From positions 1,428,501 through 1,492,500 of the forward strand of contig NZ_CP045696.1 of assembly GCF_009676955.1 (NCBI RefSeq): a stretch of DNA of 64,000 nucleotides. The letters run 5' to 3'. The position numbers and the translations under genes are program-made. Source of the stretch: Sodaliphilus pleomorphus. GTDB lineage: Bacteria > Bacteroidota > Bacteroidia > Bacteroidales > Muribaculaceae. Below are positions 8,743 through 16,620 of the stretch, one piece after another; position 1 is the first letter of the stretch, and the number at the start of each line of letters is the position of its first letter. Under the pieces are notes generated by a model that was not told where the DNA came from, searched no databases, and saw only the letters and a program-made list of their open reading frames with translations.

Positions 8743-8824
8743 GCCCAGATGGCGGAATCGGTAGACGCGCTGGTCTCAAACACCAGTGGAGCAATCCGTG
8801 CCGGTTCGACCCCGGCTCTGGGTA
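8743..8824 (+). tRNA. tRNA-Leu (anticodon CAA), integration target
   Basis: The acceptor stem GCCCAGA / TCTGGGT (8743-8749 and 8817-8823) includes one G-T pair. The anticodon stem CTGGT/ACCAG encloses CTCAAAC, giving CAA. A long variable arm and the T-arm GGTTCGACCCC are present. Its last bases form the left copy of a 15-bp sequence repeated at 15542 and 16528, so the tRNA 3' end is the integration site of the neighbouring element and is restored by it. Confidence 0.93.
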
Positions 8825-8827
8825 CAA
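8813..8827 (+). repeat. att core copy 1 (left junction)
   Basis: CGGCTCTGGGTACAA overlaps the last 12 bases of tRNA-Leu. The identical 15 bp occur at 15542-15556 and 16528-16542. Confidence 0.85.
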
Positions 8828-8829
8828 AG

Positions 8830-8871
8830 ATAGGCTGTTAATCGGTTGATTTTCAGCCTATTTTTATTTTT
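8830..8871 (+). terminator. Terminator-like hairpin just inside the element's left end
   Basis: ATAGGCTG / CAGCCTAT stem (8830-8837 and 8854-8861) followed by a T-rich run. It sits 6 nt after the tRNA-Leu 3' end, so the element brings its own tRNA terminator. A diverged copy lies at 16545-16588. Confidence 0.65.
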
Positions 8872-8893
8872 CAATAAGCAACCAATAAGCAAA
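8872..8893 (+). repeat. Left arm-type repeat of the integrative element
   Basis: Two tandem CAATAAGCAA units (11-bp spacing) form a 22-bp sequence found identically and in the same orientation at 15405-15426, close to the other end. Paired tandem motifs near each att core are what an arm-binding tyrosine integrase needs. Binding is inferred. Confidence 0.65.
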
Positions 8894-9115
8894 AACCAAC
8901 ACAATACCTCATTTTTGCCCTCAAAATTGCCTCATTTGTGGCGGTCGCTGGGTTCAACATCGGCGGCGGTGGATTGTGCCAGCGGTTGAAGGTGGCGGCT
9001 CATCGCCTCGGCGAGGGTTGAGGTGTTGAGGTCGGGGCGGCTGGCGGTGCTGGGGTGCTGCTTTCCACCTGTGGCGAGGTGTGACGGCGAGGCACAAAAG
9101 AAACAGGGCAAAACC
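8894..9115. other. Left-end region of the element, possible broken coding sequence
   Basis: No intact gene is called here. On the minus strand the frame one step from the preceding gene stays open from about 9115 down to a stop at 8932-8934. It reads protein-like segments such as DLNTSTLAEAMSRHLQPL but has no upstream start. This could be the frameshifted tail of the gene at 9116-9364 or chance. Confidence 0.3.
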
Positions 9116-9364
9116 TCATCGGCTCGCCCTGTCGCTCATCGGCGAGGGTGGGTGTTTACAATATAAGCACAATCCTAACCGCTGCACTCGCTTACAGGTG
9201 TCGGGGTGGGTGGCTTTGGTGAGGCGGTCTAACTCGCTCTCAATTTCCTCGGCGGTGGCGGTGTCATAAGATAGCCAGCCCCTCAACTCATCATCTTCAA
9301 TATAACCACGCTGCAAAGCCTGTAACAGCATTATTTTTTTCTCTCTATTAAGTTCAATCCTCAT
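9116..9364 (-). CDS. Unknown small element protein
   Basis: Unrecognised protein of 82 residues. The first half is helical and charged (MRIELNREKKIMLLQALQRG, then YIEDDELRGWLSY and EEIESELDRLTKA). The second half has CLYCKHPP, a possible metal-binding cysteine pair. Its start overlaps the end of the 95-residue gene by 11 nt, suggesting coupled translation. An open frame continues beyond its stop in another phase to 8932, so the C-terminus may have been changed by a frameshift. It is the last gene of the element's minus-strand series. Confidence 0.55.
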   Translation of the reverse strand: MRIELNREKKIMLLQALQRGYIEDDELRGWLSYDTATAEEIESELDRLTKATHPDTCKRVQRLGLCLYCKHPPSPMSDRASR

Positions 9365-9641
9365 CGGCTAAATTGTTTGAAATCTCATTTATAACGCTGG
9401 TTAATTGCTCATCGGTGAGGGAGGTTATATCAATGCTTTGTGCCTGTTGTTTTGGGATTATATATTGCATTAACTTTTCAAGTATTATTAGCCTGTCTTT
9501 GGGTTCTAACGCTTTCAAATCCCTCACCATTTGGCGGCGGTTCTTATCAATCACCTCGCCAATAAACGCCCTCACGCTCTTTGTTACTTTGTTAGGCACG
9601 CCCTTTGGTCTGCCGTTTGGGTTGTTGGTCTTACCTTTCAT
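9354..9641 (-). CDS. Small GRPKG-type mobile-element protein (DUF5681-like)
   Basis: 95 residues with the N-terminus NNPNGRPKGVPNKVTKSVR, then a helical region containing ALEPKDRLIILEKLMQYIIPK. This pattern is common in small proteins next to terminase or integrase genes of Bacteroidetes prophages and integrative elements, sometimes annotated DUF5681 or terminase-small-subunit-like. The role is unknown; the basic GRPKG stretch suggests nucleic-acid contact. It follows the HTH gene by 21 nt and overlaps the next gene. Confidence 0.65.
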   Translation of the reverse strand: MKGKTNNPNGRPKGVPNKVTKSVRAFIGEVIDKNRRQMVRDLKALEPKDRLIILEKLMQYIIPKQQAQSIDITSLTDEQLTSVINEISNNLADED

Positions 9642-9662
9642 CTTTGTAAATCTTTGTTGTTT

Positions 9663-10172
9663 TCAAACATCGGCTTTCTCGCTCAACCCCAAATCTTTTA
9701 ACGCCTGTCTGTAGGCTTTATCGTTGAGGCTGGTTTTTGATAGGTCAAAAATCGGCTCGGTGTGCTGGGCTTTTAATACCTCTCTCACATCGGTAGCCCC
9801 CACCTCTACCGCCTCAACCCTTTCAAGCAACCAAATAGCGGCTTTCAATCGGGTACCCTCGCCGCCGTTGTTCATTAACTCTCTCACGGTGTCAACCGCC
9901 TCGGCGTGCAATCCTAACAGGGCGTTTCTCACATCGGCTTTAAAGTCGCTGCATTGCTTATTGTAGAAACATTGAAACGGCAACAGGTCTTGCCACTTAT
10001 ACAGCGTGCCTCGGTTAATATTCAACCGCTGGGCTACCGCCGTGTAACTCTCACCGCTCGCCAGCAATATACAGGCTTGCTCTTGCTGGGGCGTTAATCC
10101 TGTCGCTGGCGATATTGTTGTATTTTGTTCACTTTTGTTGCCCTCGGTCGGGGCGGTCTTTCTCTCTCTCAT
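9663..10172 (-). CDS. HTH protein resembling a small terminase subunit (phBC6A51-like)
   Basis: 169 residues. An N-terminal polar tail (1-24) precedes a clear helix-turn-helix, LTPQQEQACILLASGES then YTAVAQRLNINRGTLYKWQ (about 27-62). A helical stretch with NALLGLHAEAVDTVRELM and GEGTRLKAAIWLLERVEAV follows. This order is typical of phBC6A51-type HTH proteins and small terminase subunits, which bind phage DNA. No large terminase is present, as in phage satellites that redirect a helper's packaging; the packaging role is inferred. The ATG overlaps the stop of a 9-codon leader (MLNQQHQQR) in an ATGA junction, and a dyad operator lies at 10206-10226. Confidence 0.6.
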   Translation of the reverse strand: MRERKTAPTEGNKSEQNTTISPATGLTPQQEQACILLASGESYTAVAQRLNINRGTLYKWQDLLPFQCFYNKQCSDFKADVRNALLGLHAEAVDTVRELMNNGGEGTRLKAAIWLLERVEAVEVGATDVREVLKAQHTEPIFDLSKTSLNDKAYRQALKDLGLSEKADV

Positions 10173-10198
10173 CGTTGTTGGTGTTGCTGGTTTAACAT
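10169..10198 (-). CDS. Possible 9-codon leader peptide upstream of the TerS-like gene
   Basis: ATG at 10198 reads MLNQQHQQR and stops at TGA 10169-10171, which overlaps the next gene's ATG (ATGA). The ATG sits in the same sequence context (CCGATGTT after the dyad operator) as the real start codon of rep at 11210. It therefore looks like a duplicated rep start that now couples translation of the terminase-like gene. Confidence 0.35.
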   Translation of the reverse strand: MLNQQHQQR

Positions 10199-10205
10199 CG
10201 GTCTA

Positions 10206-10243
10206 AAATTACCGATTTAGTAATTTGTGACAACTTAATATAG
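10206..10243 (-). promoter_or_regulatory. Dyad operator/promoter module, copy 1
   Basis: AAATTAC-N7-GTAATTT (10206-10226; core CGATTTA on the plus strand) is followed by GTGACAACTTAATATAG (10227-10243). The same module stands before rep at 11216-11253 with the core inverted to TAAATCG. It is upstream of the terminase-like gene, so it probably serves as a regulator-binding site and promoter. Confidence 0.6.
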
Positions 10244-10271
10244 AGGCAATTTGAAAAACAGGGCGGCGGTG

Positions 10272-11210
10272 TCAGCGGTAAAACCTCACCGCCTCGGCTA
10301 CCTTTTTGTTAAGTTCATCAATCGCCTCACTTTTGACGGTCAAACCCTCTCGCTCTTGGCACGCCGCCTTAACCGCTTGCCTCAAATCGTGTGCCTGTTT
10401 TGCCGTCAACTCGCCTCGCTTTTGTGCCTCGGCGATTTGGGCTATAAATTCCACCTCGCCGCCAGCACGCTCAACCAAAGACAAAACCCCAAACCTGTAT
10501 AACTGTTGCTTGCTTTTCATCGCTTGGAAATTTAATTGAATTTCATTGATTTTTCTTATTGCTTTGTAGGTATCTCGCCAGCGTTTGACCACGGCAATAT
10601 AAAATGCCTCATCAAACAGGGTTGCCCCTGTGACGGCTGGCACGCCTAAAACACTCGCCAGCCTGTGGGTATATCGTTGCTCATACCTCAAAACGTTTCT
10701 ACCTCGGTAGAGGTCGGGCGGTTGCTCGCCCCTCGCTCTTTGCTCTCGGTTTTTATCATAGAAACAAAGTTTCTCATCTCGGCGGTGATAATACAAACCG
10801 CTGGGCTGCAACAATCGCTTTGCCCACGCCAGCACGCCCAAATGATTTATATAAACCTCGGTGGGGTGCTGGGTGATAATATTGCACCCCACATCGAGGC
10901 GAGTAACGGCGGCGAGGTTCATAGGTAGGTGTAACTCATCGCTCAACCGCTCAACCGCTCTTTGCACATCGGCTCGCCCCATTGACTTGAAGTTATCGCC
11001 CAAAAACCATTTGCAAAGTGAACCGTCTTTAACTCTCACTTGCCAGCGGTTAACGGTCACTTTCAAGCCAGCGAGGTTGCCTGTGACAACCAAATCGCCG
11101 CCGTTGTATTGGTGGGTCGCTACATCGGTGAGGTAACAGGGTGTTTCCTCAATGAAACTCACCCCCTCAACATCGGCGGCGGTTAACTTGAAATTAACGG
11201 TGTCAAACAT
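10272..11210 (-). CDS. Phage/plasmid replication initiation protein, II/X-like
   Basis: 312 residues starting MFDTVNFKLTAADVEG. Segments such as VTRLDVGCNI, YYHRRDEKLCFYDKNRE and RNVLRYEQRYTHRLAS resemble the gene II/X-type rolling-circle replication proteins of filamentous phages and related plasmids. These nick one strand through tyrosines; several Tyr are available in YYHRRDEKLCFYDK (about 165-180), but I cannot name the catalytic one. The C-terminal third is helical and charged. It suggests that the excised element can replicate as a circle. The gene begins 5 nt after a dyad operator (11216-11236), so binding there would probably block its own translation or transcription. Identification rests on pattern similarity. 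Confidence 0.6.
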   Translation of the reverse strand: MFDTVNFKLTAADVEGVSFIEETPCYLTDVATHQYNGGDLVVTGNLAGLKVTVNRWQVRVKDGSLCKWFLGDNFKSMGRADVQRAVERLSDELHLPMNLAAVTRLDVGCNIITQHPTEVYINHLGVLAWAKRLLQPSGLYYHRRDEKLCFYDKNREQRARGEQPPDLYRGRNVLRYEQRYTHRLASVLGVPAVTGATLFDEAFYIAVVKRWRDTYKAIRKINEIQLNFQAMKSKQQLYRFGVLSLVERAGGEVEFIAQIAEAQKRGELTAKQAHDLRQAVKAACQEREGLTVKSEAIDELNKKVAEAVRFYR

Positions 11211-11215
11211 CGGCT

Positions 11216-11253
11216 AAATTACTAAATCGGTAATTTGTGACAACTTAATATAG
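11216..11253 (-). promoter_or_regulatory. Dyad operator/promoter module, copy 2 (upstream of rep)
   Basis: AAATTAC-N7-GTAATTT with plus-strand core TAAATCG (11216-11236), then GTGACAACTTAATATAG (11237-11253). Arms and tail equal those at 10206-10243, while the 7-bp core is the exact reverse complement. The ATG of rep lies 5 bp downstream. Confidence 0.6.
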
Positions 11254-11303
11254 TGTCAGTTTGTTTTGAAGTGGGTTTGATACAATCGCCCCCACCTTTG
11301 TTG

Positions 11304-11852
11304 TTACTCGCTGGGTTCTTGGTGCTGGGTGCCGATGGCGGCGGCTGGGTGGTGCTGGGTTGCTCGCTCTCTCAAAAGGTTCATTTCCTCATAAAGTTCA
11401 CCGTCACACAAAAGGTTATACAGCGGCACTCGGTCTTTACTCTTGCCTCTCGCTATAAAAACCTCCAACATTGCCCCCTGTTGAGGCTTGCCGTTAACCA
11501 CATCAAAGCCCTCAAATACAATCAAAATAGCGTCACTTGTGCCTCTCACATCACCATAGGCGAGATTAACCGCTGGGTCGGGTACAAATATACTGCTTAA
11601 ATTGTTGCTTTTCATTGTGAGGCTCTTATCGGCTTTCCTGTGTACATCGCCGCCAAAGGTTTTAGGCACATCACCAAAATATACAACCAAATCTCCCACG
11701 GCGGTAGCGTCAAAACGCTCGCTTGCTTTTCTCGGCTTGGTGGCTCGGTTTTGTTCAAACATCGGGTAACTCTCGGTGCTGGCGGTGCAATCAAGCCTCA
11801 TTTTGGCTTTGCTCGCCACTTTCTCAAAGCGGTAGTAATCGGTAAGTAACAT
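11304..11852 (-). CDS. Unknown element protein coupled to the Xis-like gene
   Basis: About 182 residues starting MLLTDYYRFEKVASKAKMR. The start is chosen at 11852 because the upstream gene's TGA overlaps this ATG (TGATG); a longer reading in this frame would run through that gene. The middle region (AVGDLVVYFGDVPKTFGG then DVRGTSDAILIVFEGFDVVNG) looks like a beta-rich single-domain protein. The C-terminus is helical (LYNLLCDGELYEEMNLLRERA). I do not recognise the family. Coupling to the Xis-like regulator and position before rep suggest a role in regulation or replication of the element. Confidence 0.5.
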   Translation of the reverse strand: MLLTDYYRFEKVASKAKMRLDCTASTESYPMFEQNRATKPRKASERFDATAVGDLVVYFGDVPKTFGGDVHRKADKSLTMKSNNLSSIFVPDPAVNLAYGDVRGTSDAILIVFEGFDVVNGKPQQGAMLEVFIARGKSKDRVPLYNLLCDGELYEEMNLLRERATQHHPAAAIGTQHQEPSE

Positions 11853-12148
11853 CACGCTGCACCCCCTCTCTCGCTGCAATAGGCGGCGGCTTGGTTGGTT
11901 AACTCGGTGTCGCTGGCAACTCGGTTGGATTGTAACCACGCCTCAACCTCACGGCGATTGAAATAACAAATCTTGCCTGTGGGTTTGTAGTGGGGTATCT
12001 CACGCCTCATTGTCAGTTTGTAAAGGTAACTTTTGGAAATCCCCATATATCGGGCGGTTTCCTCGCTGGTCAATACCTCTTTGGTGGCAAAGATTGTTCT
12101 TGCTGTTACCAAATCGGTAATTTGGTTCAAATCCTCTTGGCTCATCAC
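11850..12148 (-). CDS. Helix-turn-helix excisionase/AlpA-like protein
   Basis: 98 residues with the winged-helix pattern of MerR/Xis-type DNA-binding proteins: LTSEETARYMGISKSYLYKL (26-45) then TMRREIPHYKPTGKICYFNRREVEAWL (split here). Such proteins act as excisionases or as activators of integrative elements. Its own -7 box, TACCTTTG at 12264-12271, follows the terminator that closes the integrase operon, so it heads a second transcription unit. The stop codon overlaps the next start. The start is 12148, or the second Met three bases on. Confidence 0.8.
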
Positions 12149-12263
12149 GTTTCAAGCGTTAAGGGTCGGGGCTTTCCTGTGGTCGGTGTGAGGCGGCACA
12201 ATCTTTGCCCTGTGGTTTCACGCTGGGGCGGCTCACACTCTTGCTCCTTTGTGAAATCATCGG

Positions 12264-12271
12264 CAAAGGTA
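12264..12271 (-). promoter_or_regulatory. -7 box of the Xis-like operon
   Basis: Reverse-strand TACCTTTG lies about 116 nt before the Xis-like start. A 33-codon ORF beginning MISQRSKSVSRPS (12260-12159) occupies the leader; whether it is translated is unknown. Confidence 0.5.
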
Positions 12272-12280
12272 GAGGGTATT

Positions 12281-12327
12281 AGAAACAAAGCACCCCCACA
12301 ACAGCCCATTATCGGGGTTGTGGGGGT
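12281..12327 (-). terminator. Terminator of the integrase operon
   Basis: Perfect 11-bp stem ACCCCCACAAC / GTTGTGGGGGT (12292-12302, 12317-12327) lies 31 nt past the stop of the 460-residue gene, with GCTTTGTTTCT after it on the minus strand. Confidence 0.7.
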
Positions 12328-12357
12328 AATATCTTGGTGGCGGTGTCGGGGCTGGTG

Positions 12358-13740
12358 TTAATCCTTAAATATCGCCTCAACCTTTTCAATTCCTATCGGG
12401 TCTTGACCTGTTTTCTTAATGTCGTTTAGGCTGGTTGTTAAATTCTTGGCTTTAACGTTAAATAATGCCTCAAAGGGTTTCCAACTCAACCGCTTTTGCC
12501 CCTCGCTACTGTAACCCTTTCCCAAATCTAAATTAACGCTCATTTCACGGCAAAAACACGCTAACAGGGATTGACTTGCCAGCCACTTATATTGCTCGCT
12601 CATCAAGCCAGCGACAACCGCTCTTGCAAAATATTCCCTCGCTTGCTCGGTATCTAACTCGCTGGGCAACTCTCGCCCTGTGGCTGGTTCTTGGCTCGCT
12701 GGCGGCTGGTTGCCTTGTGGCTGGTCGGCGGTCGCTGGCTCATCATCGGCGAGGCGATGCACGCCAAAAAAGGTATTTTGCACTAATCGCCCCACCTCGG
12801 TACTATACAGGTAATCGGTTAGCGGTTTCAGTCGCTCTCTATCGCCCTTGCCCCACGGCTTAAAGGTGAAACTAATTAGTTTCTCACTCAACCGCTCTTG
12901 CAACCATTCATAAAGCAAAACAGCGTCTTGGTAGCCTGTATCGCTCTCGGTGAGGGTGCAACACTCTAACATCTTGCAAAGCCCCTGTAACAACAGGATT
13001 TGAAACAACAGCCCCCAAATTGGCACATCATCAAGCCCCCTCAACCGCTCAATGATTTTGAATTTTACTTTGTGAGGCTCGGCGGTGTTGCTCTTAATAT
13101 CATCGCCCATTGATTTGAGCAAAGCAAACAGCAATCGGGTTAGTTCTTTGTTTAGTAGTCTGGGCGTTATCCCATAGTTTTTAAGGTCGCTATAAAACGG
13201 CTGGTTACTGCATTGCACATTGTAAGCCTCTACACACATAAACTCATCTAACCCCTCATCATCATCGCTCGGCTCGGTTTCATTTGCCCATAGCCCCACG
13301 CCCTTAACCGCTTGGCGGTCTAACTCGCTGGTTATTGCTTGGTGCAATTCCTGTGGGGCGATAATACTGAAATTCATAAACCGCCAGCCCTCGCCCTGTT
13401 GAAGTCGGGGCGGCTCATCGGTCGGGGTGGCTTGGCTGGTTAACTCGGCGAGGTAGCTTTGCTGCAACCGCTTGCCCTCTAAAACAATCTCACAATATCG
13501 GGTAAAATCCTTACACAATGCCTCATTGCCAGCAAAGCCAGCGTTATTTATCGCCTCGGCAATCTTGGCGGTGTCGGGGCTGGCTGGTAATTCCTCGGTG
13601 CCATCCCAAAACGCCGTTTTATATATTACTCGCTGTCGCTCATCGGCGGCAAACAGGGCGGCAAATACTTGCTCAAACTCGGCTCTATATAGCCCCTCTT
13701 GCTCGGTGCAAAGCCTCTCAAATTTCTCGCTGTCGCTCAT
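12358..13740 (-). CDS. Unknown 460-residue element protein
   Basis: I do not recognise a characterised family. The N-terminal 60 residues are helical (FERLCTEQEGLYRAEFEQVF). A middle region is acidic with ETEPSDDDEGLDEF (about 178-191), and a proline-rich linker lies near 345-365. The C-terminal about 100 residues (REYFARAVVAGLMSEQYKWL, then ALLACFCREM) resemble a domain repeatedly seen at the end of accessory proteins next to tyrosine integrases in Bacteroidetes elements. It overlaps the coiled-coil gene by 4 nt (ATGA) and closes the integrase operon before the terminator at 12281. A regulatory or accessory role in integration is a guess. Confidence 0.6.
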   Translation of the reverse strand: MSDSEKFERLCTEQEGLYRAEFEQVFAALFAADERQRVIYKTAFWDGTEELPASPDTAKIAEAINNAGFAGNEALCKDFTRYCEIVLEGKRLQQSYLAELTSQATPTDEPPRLQQGEGWRFMNFSIIAPQELHQAITSELDRQAVKGVGLWANETEPSDDDEGLDEFMCVEAYNVQCSNQPFYSDLKNYGITPRLLNKELTRLLFALLKSMGDDIKSNTAEPHKVKFKIIERLRGLDDVPIWGLLFQILLLQGLCKMLECCTLTESDTGYQDAVLLYEWLQERLSEKLISFTFKPWGKGDRERLKPLTDYLYSTEVGRLVQNTFFGVHRLADDEPATADQPQGNQPPASQEPATGRELPSELDTEQAREYFARAVVAGLMSEQYKWLASQSLLACFCREMSVNLDLGKGYSSEGQKRLSWKPFEALFNVKAKNLTTSLNDIKKTGQDPIGIEKVEAIFKD

Positions 13741-14102
13741 AATTGTAAACCGTTTAGTTTCAGTTTCAAGTCAATAATCTCGCTCGCCTGTGATATTACT
13801 TTGTCGGTTAACTCGCCTATTTGGGCGGTTTGCTGGGCTATAACATCAAGCAATTTTTGTATTACCACATCACTGTTAATGCTAATATTACCAAAACTTT
13901 TGCACCCCTCACCATAGCAATAAATTTGAATATTGTTGCTACCGCTTACATTTTGAAAATTGTTGCCCCCTATGTCGGTCGGGGTAATATTAAGGTTTCC
14001 AGCGGCGAGGTTGCCCCCTCGCTCATCGTCGGCGAGGGTGGCGGCTGGCTGGTTGAGGCTCGCCAGCGGCTGGCGGCTCTTTGTGGCTGGTAATTTGCTC
14101 AT
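13737..14102 (-). CDS. Small coiled-coil element protein
   Basis: 121 residues from ATG 14102. An apparent earlier start (14111) uses TTG inside the integrase stop region and is rejected. A polar N-terminus is followed by an Asn/Gly-rich strand region (NNFQNVSGSNNIQIYCYGEG, about residues 46-65) and a heptad-like helix at the C-terminus (VVIQKLLDVIAQQTAQIGEL, then TDKVISQASEIIDLKLKL), probably a coiled coil. It begins 6 nt after the integrase stop and overlaps the next gene by 4 nt. Function unknown. Confidence 0.55.
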   Translation of the reverse strand: MSKLPATKSRQPLASLNQPAATLADDERGGNLAAGNLNITPTDIGGNNFQNVSGSNNIQIYCYGEGCKSFGNISINSDVVIQKLLDVIAQQTAQIGELTDKVISQASEIIDLKLKLNGLQL

Positions 14103-14107
14103 CGCTC

Positions 14108-15349
14108 TCAATCAATATTTAACGCTGGTAGGCTGGCAATCGCCTGTTGTTTTAGGCTGTCAACCGCTCTTGTATATTTCTCGGTGTGTTTCAAACCGCT
14201 GTGTCCTAACAGGCTCGCCACGGTCTTAATATTAGCCCCATTGTTCAAGATATTCACGGCAAAACTATGTCTTGCACAATGCCAACTAATATGCTTGGAA
14301 ATTCCAGCACGTTTAACCCACCTTTTAAGGGCTTTTAGGCACATTTCATAACTCGGTAAGGGAAATATCACCTCGCCCCTGTTATCGGGCTGTGACGGCT
14401 CGCCAATTAGTTTTAGGTGGGTTTCATCAAGCGGTATCACAACACCGCTGTTAACGCTGTGTCCTTTGGTCTTGTTTTGCTCAAACTTTAACAGGCGGTT
14501 GGCAAAATCCACGTTTGTAAATGTAAGGTCTTTCACATCACAAAATCTCAACCCTGTATAGAGGCAAAACAGGAAAGCACGCCTAATATTGGGGTTCTCA
14601 TTATCATAGTGGGTTGAGGCTAATTGTGCAATCTCATCAAGCGACAAAATTTCTTTCCTTAATTGGTTATCGTCAACCTTAATGCTTATCGTTTTGCCGT
14701 CAACATCGGTAAACGGCTCGGTATAGTTAAACTTATACTTAACCCCACAACTTTTATAGACTTTCTTAAAGCGTGCAAATATGCCTCTCGCCCCCTCACC
14801 TATACTCCTACTTTGTAGGTACTCGGTAAAGGTCAACATCATTTCACGGCTTATTTGCTGGGGCGTGATATGCTTTTGAAATTTCTTGTACTCGGCGGTA
14901 TCTCTCAAAAAATCTTGAAAGCGGTGCAAAGCAATTTCAATCATTCTAATATCTTTCTTGGTGTAACTCTCAATGTAGGATTGAAAGTAAGCAATAAAAT
15001 CAATGTCTTTGGGCTTTGCCAGCCTGTAACCCTCATTGCTCTCTAACAACTCTTGCCCACGCTCATAACGTATCTTTTTGGCGAGGGCTAACGTTTCTTT
15101 GTTTTGCTGTCGCTCAATCGGGGTTCTTGGTGCTTGCCACAGGTAAAGCCCCAAACGCTCGGTTTGGCGGTTCACTTTCTTGTAAGTGTTACCGCTCTTG
15201 CTCACCGCCTCGGTATAGCCTAAATAAAACTCCAAATATAGGCTCTCTCTACCGTCACTCAATACCTGTGCAAATAGTTTGGGGTTATCGCCACTTGCAC
15301 CCTCAATTAGATAGGTATTGTTAGCCCTGTAATTCTTTTTGGTTGCCAT
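14108..15349 (-). CDS. int: Tyrosine recombinase (integrase)
   Basis: Site-specific integrase of 413 residues. The N-terminal 100 residues form an arm-binding-type region, a SAM-like core-binding domain covers about 110-205, and the catalytic domain about 230-400. The catalytic set is intact: R268 in LYTGLRFCD, H357 and R360 in HCARHSF, H383 in LLGHS, and Y392 in HTEKYTR. It probably drives integration into the tRNA-Leu 3' end, consistent with the 15-bp core repeats. It is transcribed inward from the right end, where a TACCTTTG box (15382-15389) lies beside the arm repeat. Confidence 0.95.
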   Translation of the reverse strand: MATKKNYRANNTYLIEGASGDNPKLFAQVLSDGRESLYLEFYLGYTEAVSKSGNTYKKVNRQTERLGLYLWQAPRTPIERQQNKETLALAKKIRYERGQELLESNEGYRLAKPKDIDFIAYFQSYIESYTKKDIRMIEIALHRFQDFLRDTAEYKKFQKHITPQQISREMMLTFTEYLQSRSIGEGARGIFARFKKVYKSCGVKYKFNYTEPFTDVDGKTISIKVDDNQLRKEILSLDEIAQLASTHYDNENPNIRRAFLFCLYTGLRFCDVKDLTFTNVDFANRLLKFEQNKTKGHSVNSGVVIPLDETHLKLIGEPSQPDNRGEVIFPLPSYEMCLKALKRWVKRAGISKHISWHCARHSFAVNILNNGANIKTVASLLGHSGLKHTEKYTRAVDSLKQQAIASLPALNID

Positions 15350-15381
15350 TGTCTTTGTTGCTTTTTATTTCCTTTACTTTG

Positions 15382-15389
15382 CAAAGGTA
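15382..15389 (-). promoter_or_regulatory. -7 box of integrase promoter
   Basis: Reverse-strand TACCTTTG lies 33 nt before the integrase ATG and 16 bp from the right arm repeat. Integrase bound to the arm could therefore repress its own promoter (inferred). Confidence 0.5.
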
Positions 15390-15404
15390 AATTTTATTTT
15401 CACT

Positions 15405-15426
15405 CAATAAGCAACCAATAAGCAAA
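15405..15426 (+). repeat. Right arm-type repeat of the integrative element
   Basis: Identical in sequence and orientation to 8872-8893, with two CAATAAGCAA units. It lies 116 bp inside the right att core. Confidence 0.65.
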
Positions 15427-15541
15427 TTTTGTCAAAATAAGGTCTTTTTTTTGAAATCAAGTGAAAATGTAGGCAACTTAATAGGCTGATTTTCTTTGTT
15501 GTTAGTTTCTCTTGGTTATTGTTTTTTGCTGGGTACATTAT

Positions 15542-15556
15542 CGGCTCTGGGTACAA
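15542..15556 (+). repeat. att core copy 2 (right junction)
   Basis: Same 15 bp as the tRNA-Leu 3' end. It is followed at once by a strong terminator hairpin, probably the native downstream flank of the tRNA. Confidence 0.8.
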
Positions 15557-15560
15557 TATA

Positions 15561-15602
15561 AATCCCGTAAGTCCTTTTACATAAAAAGCTTACGGGATTT
15601 TT
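15561..15602 (+). terminator. Probable native tRNA-Leu terminator, displaced by the element
   Basis: AATCCCGTAAG / CTTACGGGATT, an 11-bp perfect stem followed by T5. It lies 5 nt after att copy 2, the place expected for the original tRNA terminator. Confidence 0.75.
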
Positions 15603-16059
15603 CATTTCCTCTTGGGAAACATTTGAGAAACATTTCGGGAAGAAGTCTGCCAAAAAGTGATAAGGATAAGACCCAGGCAGAGTCTTATTGAATAGCGTCG
15701 GATAAGAATGATTATTTCACCAACATCTTATAGCTTCTGCGCGCTGATTATTGCGAGAAAGACGTATGTTGTTAAGCCCAATCTAAGAATGCCCAAGATG
15801 TAGCATGCAAGATGATTGGGTATATTCTGACATGTAAAGAAAGCCATCTTTATTCTTTGACAAGTCACTCTTTAGCACTATCTTTGACGTACAAATCTGT
15901 GTCAAAACACATAAATATATTCCAAAGCGATGCTATTTGAACGAAAACATTATCTGAACCTGCTGCAGAATGCCGATGGAAACGGTATACACACATAAAT
16001 AGGTATGCCCCACAGACCGACCAGCACTTAGACTGACTATCTGTGGGGCTTGATTGTTC
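15603..16059. other. AT-rich non-coding stretch between att copies
   Basis: No ORF with coding character is seen. At its right end lies a GCCCCACAGA / TCTGTGGGGC inverted repeat (16007-16016, 16040-16049), just past the stop of the truncated ORF, as a terminator would be. Confidence 0.5.
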
Positions 16060-16542
16060 TTACGGTTGCTTGTCGGGAGCCAGAGTGTACTTGATCTCTC
16101 CGCTTTCCCACTTCTTCCACGAATTGGGATTTTTCTCCTTCATGTAGTGGCCCCAGTTTACGAACTTCTGATAGTCTTTCTTTTGCTGCTCCACTTCCTT
16201 CACTTTGTCGCCGAGCTGAGCATTGCGGAACCAGAAGAGAACAGTGAAGCATGTGCCGAAAGCAATGGAGAATACAAGCGAGAGAATGTAATAGATGCGC
16301 TGCTTGTAGAACTTTTCGAGCAGTGCCTCATGTTTCTGCGACAGGTTTGCCTCCACTTTCTCAGGGATGCTCTTCAGAAGTTCGTTCTTGAAGGCGGTGA
16401 AGTCGTTGATGGCGGTCAGAAGAATATCGGTATTCTCCTGGATATTTGCCTTCATCGCCTCACGCCCCTCATGGTCTGAGAAGTCGCGCGGCGTGCCGTC
16501 CTCACGGAGGTAGGCCGAGCAGATCTCCGGCTCTGGGTACAA
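16060..16542 (-). pseudogene. Truncated membrane/coiled-coil protein, 5' end replaced by an att copy
   Basis: The open frame enters from the third att core (16528-16542) without a good start; only TTG at 16542 or a late ATG at 16455 is available. It encodes EICSAYLREDGTPRDFSDHE, a long helix, one transmembrane segment (IYYILSLVFSIAFGTCFTVLF, split here) and a helical tail ending KWESGEIKYTLAPDKQP. The look is that of the C-terminal part of an accessory or mobilisation-type membrane protein of Bacteroidales elements, but I cannot name it. The gene seems to have lost its 5' part when an element integrated or was deleted. Confidence 0.5.
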
Positions 16543-16620
16543 AGATAGGCTGTTGATCGCTTGATTTTCAGCCTATTTTTATTTTTTCAACAAGCAACCT
16601 ACAAGCAAAAACCGGCTCAG
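16528..16620 (+). mobile_element. Third att core with decayed left end of a related element
   Basis: The att core at 16528-16542 is followed by the ATAGGCTG/CAGCCTAT hairpin and CAACAAGCAACC-type motifs that parallel 8813-8896 with scattered substitutions. It looks like the left end of a sister element that is otherwise gone, indicating repeated or tandem integration at this tRNA. Confidence 0.65.

What the first reader, a model, noticed from the sequence alone, without database searches (positions are those of the whole stretch)
8813..15556. Compact tRNA-Leu element with II/X-like Rep, Xis/AlpA-like HTH and TerS-like HTH but no capsid or mobilisation genes
Seen: a 15-bp core repeated at 8813 and 15542, intact integrase, all genes on one strand, a rep-like gene, a small-terminase-like HTH gene and a GRPKG-type protein. 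Known: phage satellites (PICI-type) combine integrase, AlpA/Xis-like regulator, own replication gene and small terminase while lacking structural genes. Inference: this could be a Bacteroidales phage satellite that uses a filamentous-phage-type replication protein instead of a primase, an uncommon combination; alternatively it is a minimal integrative plasmid.
Basis: partly seen in the sequence, partly recalled or inferred. Interest (0 to 1): 0.78.

Follow-up and report, generated by a model that had tools for sequence, protein, structure and literature searches.

The report
Bacteroidota phage-satellite family with filamentous-type Rep
A small DNA island in a Bacteroidota bacterium looks like a parasite of viruses: it appears to copy itself with a replication protein of the kind used by filamentous phages and to steal the shells of tailed phages by supplying its own packaging-start protein, and relatives in other Bacteroidota carry different versions of that protein in the same spot.

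Summary
The island is real: 6.7 kb, nine likely genes on one strand, at tRNA-Leu(CAA), 15-bp core at 8813 and 15542. It belongs to a Bacteroidota family: Int - variable gene - AlpA - unknown p211 - Phage_CRI Rep - slot. The slot holds, in different relatives, five kinds of small-terminase or terS-position protein: HTH TerS, GRPKG, KGG, P27/Terminase_4, phrog_309 TerS; some kinds may be distant kin. All 29 hits by models of the first four lie in the slot, of 5,430 ORFs scanned. GRPKG lies just 5' of terL in 44 of 74 viral loci, 29 of 36 clusters. A dyad operator with three sites in the 3.34-Mb chromosome, all in the island, sits at alpA, rep and terS. No relaxase, coupling-protein or capsid family matched the nine proteins. 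Best reading: a tailed-phage satellite that replicates by rolling circle and redirects packaging with exchangeable small terminases. Against: 11 of 33 core loci lack a recognised terS, including the nearest sister; helper, excision and packaging are not shown. IME is the main rival. Paper listings showed no such family.

The parts
8743..8825 (+). tRNA-Leu (CAA), integration target
   Evidence: ARAGORN
8813..8827 (.). attL core, 15 bp
8873..8892 (.). paired arm-type repeats AATAAGCAA, left end
9116..9364 (-). 82-aa ORF, 97% identical over 71 aa in L003, dN/dS 0.04 over 70 codons, function unknown
9354..9641 (-). GRPKG protein (DUF5681-like), proposed second small-terminase-type gene
   Evidence: homologs often lie 5' of terL in viral contigs; not so in BF1-TP2 and BKO1-TP3
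9663..10172 (-). small-terminase-like HTH protein (169 aa)
   Evidence: PHROG terS E=5.6e-7; PDB profile; fold search; dN/dS 0.22 against L003
10206..10253 (.). regulatory repeat with dyad operator, before the terS gene
10272..11210 (-). Rep, Phage_CRI (filamentous-phage gpII-type replication initiator), 312 aa
   Evidence: Pfam E=1e-21
11216..11263 (.). second copy of the regulatory repeat with dyad operator, before rep
11304..11855 (-). p211: core gene of the family, about 183 aa from ATG, no known domain
11852..12148 (-). AlpA/Xis-like HTH_17 protein
   Evidence: Pfam E=2.9e-13
12104..12122 (.). third operator copy, inside the 5' end of alpA
12358..13740 (-). 460-aa variable gene whose C-terminal part (up to about 130 aa) is shared with relatives
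13737..14111 (-). 124-aa ORF, unknown
14108..15349 (-). tyrosine integrase with arm-binding domain
15406..15425 (.). paired arm-type repeats AATAAGCAA, right end
15542..15556 (.). attR core, 15 bp
16527..16616 (.). third core plus decayed left-arm copy: probable remnant of another insertion

Best explanation
A phage satellite of tailed phages. Shown: an integrated element with its own integrase, AlpA-type protein, Phage_CRI replication protein and a slot of small-terminase-type genes, with one dyad operator at alpA, rep and terS. Inferred: a helper phage (or another signal) activates alpA; Int and AlpA excise the circle; the Phage_CRI Rep nicks it and makes concatemers by rolling circle; the island's TerS (HTH protein, perhaps with GRPKG) marks island DNA and feeds it to the helper's large terminase, so that helper capsids carry the island. 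Relatives change helpers by exchanging the terS gene.
For: Rep is Phage_CRI. The slot behind Rep holds P27 TerS in L010 (Terminase_4 E=2.5e-11, above its cut-off; PHROG terS 1.6e-19); phrog_309 TerS in L189 (3.2e-13); KGG in L120 (phrog_2412 E=2.8e-18) and L121 (own model), whose relatives lie directly 5' of annotated terL in phages EJ-1 and Javan213 (two of 26 hit records opened); HTH TerS and GRPKG in others. 29 of 29 hits by models of four classes (HTH, GRPKG, KGG, P27) lie in the slot, 0 elsewhere, of 5,430 ORFs in 56 loci. Seeds came from 11 of these loci; 13 loci that gave no seed also hit (one, L121, close to the seed L120). GRPKG: the longest nearby downstream ORF is TerL by BLAST linkage in 44 of 74 viral loci and 29 of 36 clusters, in 23 of those 29 overlapping or within 10 bp; Pfam/PHROG terminase hits. 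HTH TerS: its only hits in the phage collection are 3 Streptococcus satellite phages (E 2e-3 to 4e-3); a KGG relative is in satellite Javan342. TerS dN/dS 0.22 against L003. Operator: 3 sites in 3.34 Mb, all in the island; looser form before rep in 17 of 36 loci, before the slot in 8 of 36, at alpA in 10 of 32, background 0.007 per 170 bp. The chromosome holds a prophage with integrase, terS-position gene, TerL, portal, head protease, major head protein and tape measure. No relaxase, coupling-protein or capsid family matched the nine proteins.
Against: 11 of 33 loci with Rep+p211 have no recognised terS class in the slot; L119 and L126 end at a contig edge, but L002, the nearest sister (96% in Rep), lacks it outright. 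The five kinds are not shown to be unrelated: GRPKG and KGG proteins both touch DUF5681 below its cut-off, and the HTH and phrog_309 kinds share weak PHROG hits. Pfam's matches to the HTH protein are transposase/resolvase-type HTHs, not terminases. TerS activity of GRPKG and KGG rests on gene position. The resident prophage's terS-position gene is KGG-like, unlike this island's, so it need not be the helper. Rep had no relative among phage records or viral contigs. The operator pattern was drawn from the sites themselves. No pac/cos site was searched for; circle and packaged DNA could not be looked for.
Confidence: 0.72

Rival explanations
1. An integrative and mobilizable element (or integrative plasmid): the Phage_CRI Rep doubles as relaxase, nicks an oriT and borrows a conjugation system; the TerS-like genes are accessory DNA-binding proteins.
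For: Streptococcal IMEs with relaxases related to rolling-circle initiators exist (PMC5357655, passages), and Rep is an initiator of that broad kind (Phage_CRI). Elements without a recognised terS exist. The HTH protein also resembles transposase-type HTHs.
Against: No relaxase or coupling-protein family matched the nine proteins or the variable genes; in those streptococcal IMEs 83 of 118 with a non-canonical relaxase encode TcpA (abstract). It does not explain why the slot is filled by several kinds of terS-type gene.
Confidence: 0.18
2. A satellite of filamentous phages: Rep makes single strands that a helper inovirus exports.
For: Rep is of the filamentous type.
Against: No coat or Zot-type family matched the nine proteins, and the slot proteins point to double-stranded DNA packaging by tailed phages.
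Confidence: 0.04
3. A decaying prophage remnant with no transfer of its own.
For: Small size; relatives without a recognised terS; a broken HTH terS in L151.
Against: All nine genes are open; dN/dS is 0.04-0.28 for six of seven genes compared with L002 or L003 (GRPKG 1.01, too few changes to tell; two wider comparisons were saturated); architecture conserved across the phylum.
Confidence: 0.06

Closest known systems
Phage-inducible chromosomal islands (PICI; PMC6092414, passages seen)
   Same: Integrase with specific att site, AlpA-type regulator, own replication module, optional terS
   Different: PICIs replicate with a primase/rep module; here a Phage_CRI initiator and the unknown p211; several terS kinds in one slot; Bacteroidota hosts
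PICMI (PMC10803314, passages seen)
   Same: About 6 kb, int + alpA + replication gene, rolling-circle-like replication and concatemer packaging reported for PICMI
   Different: PICMIs need a primase and the fis site, and no terS was found in the prototype; here Phage_CRI Rep, a tRNA site and terS-type genes
Streptococcus satellite phages Javan343, 479, 519, 342 (records 343, 479, 342 opened; 519 seen only in the listing)
   Same: Carry relatives of the HTH TerS (343, 479, 519) or of the KGG protein (342)
   Different: Primase annotated in 343 and helicase loader in 342; larger (9.1-11.4 kb); Streptococcus hosts
IMEs with rolling-circle-type relaxases (PMC5357655, passages seen)
   Same: Integrase plus a replication-initiator-type protein
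   Different: 83 of 118 with such relaxases encode a TcpA coupling protein; none matched here

Membership tests
PICI | integrase and specific attachment site | tested here: met
PICI | primase/rep replication module with its origin | tested here: not met
   a Phage_CRI initiator and no primase domain among the nine proteins; origin not searched for
PICI | AlpA-type regulator (Gram-negative PICIs) | tested here: met
   HTH_17, PHROG excisionase/regulator; role untested
PICI | terS homolog (present in some) | tested here: met
PICI | phage-dependent induction and packaging in phage particles | not testable with these tools
   needs culture or virion sequencing
PICMI | int + alpA + primase next to fis | tested here: not met
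   no primase; site is tRNA-Leu
Phage satellite (general) | no structural genes of its own but a gene that redirects packaging | tested here: met
   by sequence only; function inferred
Phage satellite (general) | dependence on a helper phage | not testable with these tools
   a candidate prophage exists in the same chromosome
IME | relaxase and/or coupling protein or oriT | tested here: inconclusive
   no known relaxase or coupling domain matched; Rep could act as one; oriT not searched for
Inovirus | coat proteins and a Zot-type ATPase | tested here: not met
   no such match in the nine proteins

The most novel reading that the evidence does not exclude
A phylum-wide family of Bacteroidota phage satellites, unlike PICI, P4, PICMI and PLE (P4 and PLE recalled), that unites filamentous-phage-type rolling-circle replication with packaging by tailed phages and changes helper by exchanging different small-terminase genes in one regulated slot; GRPKG (DUF5681-like) and phrog_2412 proteins are unrecognised small terminases.
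Probability: 0.58. Interest if true: 0.86.

Novelty: new variant of a known kind. Interest (0 to 1): 0.77.

Why it matters
My paper searches listed nothing on a phage-satellite family in Bacteroidota (listings, one library), a phylum central to gut and rumen. The family combines a replication type of filamentous phages with a packaging strategy of tailed-phage satellites. Its slot gives a natural series of exchanged small terminases and makes testable function predictions for two protein groups of unknown function, GRPKG (DUF5681-like) and phrog_2412.

Tried and rejected
p211: no match in Pfam, PHROGs or NCBIfam or by profile in the PDB; an AlphaFold model (pLDDT 72) gave no credible fold match; function left open. 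The variable 460-aa gene matched nothing; of nine such genes aligned, two weak Pfam hits only. The Rep profile had no credible relative among solved structures (one hit at E=0.14), so the HUH mechanism rests on the Pfam match and on recalled knowledge of that family. Rep had no match among 50,697 phage records and one distant match among plasmids. TerS and Rep searches of viral contigs found no relatives. GRPKG had no match among plasmids and three among phages. The P27 protein of L010 had no hit in the phage collection. L013 (distant Rep, Parabacteroides record) was considered as an inovirus; four of its proteins were scanned and matched nothing of use, and it is not used. The idea that L205 is a helper phage with the island's module was dropped: its 35-kb contig shows a tape-measure-like gene, and I recognised no terL or capsid gene by eye (one of its proteins was scanned). 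A Rep-independent search of the own genome for the HTH TerS was not made. LepA and MnmE names for flanking genes, and 'tape-measure-like' and 'ATPase-like' for L205, are recalled from sequence motifs, not from a call.
Full report
Observation. The island is as described: tRNA-Leu(CAA) at 8743-8825, a 15-bp core at 8813 and 15542, nine likely genes on the - strand, an intact integrase, a Phage_CRI Rep (E=1e-21) and an HTH_17 AlpA-like protein. Paired arm-type repeats lie inside both ends. A third core with a 97% copy of the left arm at 16527-16586 suggests another insertion at the same site.

Family. Rep found 11 loci in the species-genome collection. Alignment A1 then found matches at E<=0.001 in 17 of 397 genomes of the family, 16 of 393 of the order and 13 of 395 of the phylum, the window's own genome counted in each; some are distant Reps without the rest of the module. 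Of 56 loci scanned, 33 have Rep and p211. Order: Int, variable gene, AlpA, p211, Rep, slot; Int is cut off by the contig edge in some. Nearest tRNAs: Leu (CAA, TAA, CAG) in the window's kin, Met, Arg and others elsewhere; L006-L009 lie before a gene that I recall as lepA. End repeats longer than the largest of 30 shuffles: 19 of 40 scorable loci.

The slot. Behind Rep lie terS-type genes of several kinds: HTH TerS in 4 loci (window, L003, L005 and, broken in two pieces, L151); GRPKG in 19 loci, 21 genes (window, L003, L004, L006, L007, L009, L011, L012, L123, L125, L152-L159, L161; two copies in L152 and L155); KGG in L120 and L121; P27 in L010. These are 29 hits, all within 1 kb behind Rep on its strand, and none among the other ORFs of 5,430. 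L010: Terminase_4 E=2.5e-11, 44.3 bits against 24.7, and PHROG terS 1.6e-19. L189 carries a fifth kind by family scan, phrog_309 TerS, E=3.2e-13. Models were seeded with proteins from 11 of the loci (window, L003-L007, L009-L012, L120) and, for KGG, three phage or prophage proteins; hits in 13 other loci (L121, L123, L125, L151-L159, L161) were not seeded, L121 being close to L120. Of the 33 core loci 22 carry a recognised class and 11 do not (L002, L008, L119, L122, L124, L126, L160, L190-L192, L195); L119 and L126 end at a contig edge; L192 has an unassigned HTH protein there.

How separate the kinds are. GRPKG and KGG proteins both touch DUF5681 below its cut-off (E=0.0013 and 7e-5); the HTH and phrog_309 kinds share weak PHROG families. 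So there may be as few as three independent groups: HTH-type, GRPKG/KGG-type and P27.

Why these are terminase genes. HTH protein: PHROG terS families; PDB profile hits 2AO9 (E=0.001) and four Sf6 gp1 chains (0.098-0.26), and one transcription regulator (0.37); the nine top fold matches are 2AO9, NV1 small terminase at rank 17, TetR-type regulators between (model from three sequences, pLDDT 69, pTM 0.45, no E-value under 0.001, so supportive only). Against: its Pfam matches are transposase- and resolvase-type HTHs and NCBIfam gives a sub-threshold IS630 match. Its three hits in the phage collection are Streptococcus satellite phages. Terminase_6N matches 33 of 74 and Terminase_3 29 of 74, overlapping sets. 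Contrary: seven clusters, one of them with 20 loci and one with 6, are not linked. In BF1-TP2 and BKO1-TP3 GRPKG lies near the integrase with no terminase annotated in the stretch; in MW202710 it overlaps terL (profile match E=1.7e-11). KGG: 26 phage records matched; in the two that I opened, EJ-1 and Javan213, it overlaps the start of terL; it is also in satellite Javan342 and, more weakly, directly 5' of terL in the prophage of the window's genome (phrog_2412 E=1.7e-6; 39% over 41 aa to the L120 protein).

Exchange. On a tree of 35 Reps the window's neighbours differ in slot: window and L003 (HTH+GRPKG), L002 (none), L004 (GRPKG), L122 (none), L120/L121 (KGG), L005 (HTH); L010 (P27) groups with L011/L012 (GRPKG) at 100/99. 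Half of the inner branches (16 of 32) are well supported; L195 is very long.

Control. The dyad TTACYRAWTYRGTAA occurs at three places in the chromosome, all in the island: before terS, before rep and inside the start of alpA; the backward control pattern has none (in the window, 3 found against 0.01 expected). The pattern was drawn from these sites. The looser TTAC-N7-GTAA lies before rep in 17 of 36 loci, before the slot in 8 of 36 and at alpA in 10 of 32, against 0.007 per 170 bp elsewhere in the same loci; some loci are close kin. In 14 of 45 scorable loci (of 46) the sequence before rep recurs before the slot at 21/28 or better, four shuffles per locus reaching 20 at most; the repeated sequence differs between lineages. 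I infer shared control of replication and packaging genes, perhaps by AlpA.

Constraint. dN/dS: TerS 0.22, p82 0.04, Rep 0.28, p211 0.28 (against L003), AlpA 0.08, Int 0.10 (against L002), Rep 0.12 (against L004); GRPKG 1.01 against L003 with too few changes; TerS against L005 and GRPKG against L004 saturated.

Helper. The chromosome holds one TerL by two Pfam models (Terminase_3 E=2.2e-33; Terminase_6N) within a prophage with integrase, portal, head protease, major head protein and tape measure. Its terS-position gene is KGG-like, not one of the island's kinds, and GRPKG occurs only in the island. The resident prophage is a candidate at most.

Viral contigs. Through GRPKG and p211 two short IMG/VR contigs proved to be family members: L019 (Int, AlpA, Rep, GRPKG; p211 not recognised) and L204 (all of these with p211). 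Their listing as viral is not evidence of packaging.

Rivals. The IME reading is the strongest: Phage_CRI Rep could act as relaxase, as other rolling-circle-type initiators are assumed to in streptococcal IMEs (PMC5357655, passages). It leaves the slot unexplained. PICI and PICMI membership fail on the replication gene (PMC6092414, PMC10803314, passages).

In print. Searches listed no paper on a Bacteroidota satellite family; several listings were cut (15 of 16, 15 of 24, 12 of 14, 10 of 1,460). I saw passages of PMC12946183 (lateral transduction in Bacteroides) and PMC11389934, and the outline and abstract of PMC12324425 (marine Charybdis elements, not alike in gene content by its abstract). 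The library lacks most subscription papers.

Noticed in passing
window 16527-16616: Third core repeat plus decayed left arm; 15557-16527 lies between two cores and may be another inserted piece.
   Followed up: partly
G000:C1 about 2173700-2203000 (L169, L170): Tailed prophage with integrase, terS-position gene, TerL, portal, protease, capsid and tape measure in the same chromosome; ends not determined.
   Followed up: partly
L205/L209/L210 and L206: IMG/VR contigs with the island's Int-AlpA-p211 module followed not by Rep but by an ATPase-like gene, others, and a tape-measure-like gene (names recalled).
   Followed up: partly
L019 and L204: Two short IMG/VR contigs listed as viral belong to the island family; both end in GRPKG; p211 recognised only in L204, which has a GTPase gene upstream and so looks integrated.
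   Followed up: partly
L152, L155: Two GRPKG paralogs in tandem in the slot.
   Followed up: no
L159, L190, L191: Similar-looking proteins of 187-198 aa of unknown function near the slot.
   Followed up: no
L009: Family member on a 3.8-kb contig binned as Elusimicrobiaceae whose Rep groups closely with Bacteroidales members; possibly misbinned.
   Followed up: no
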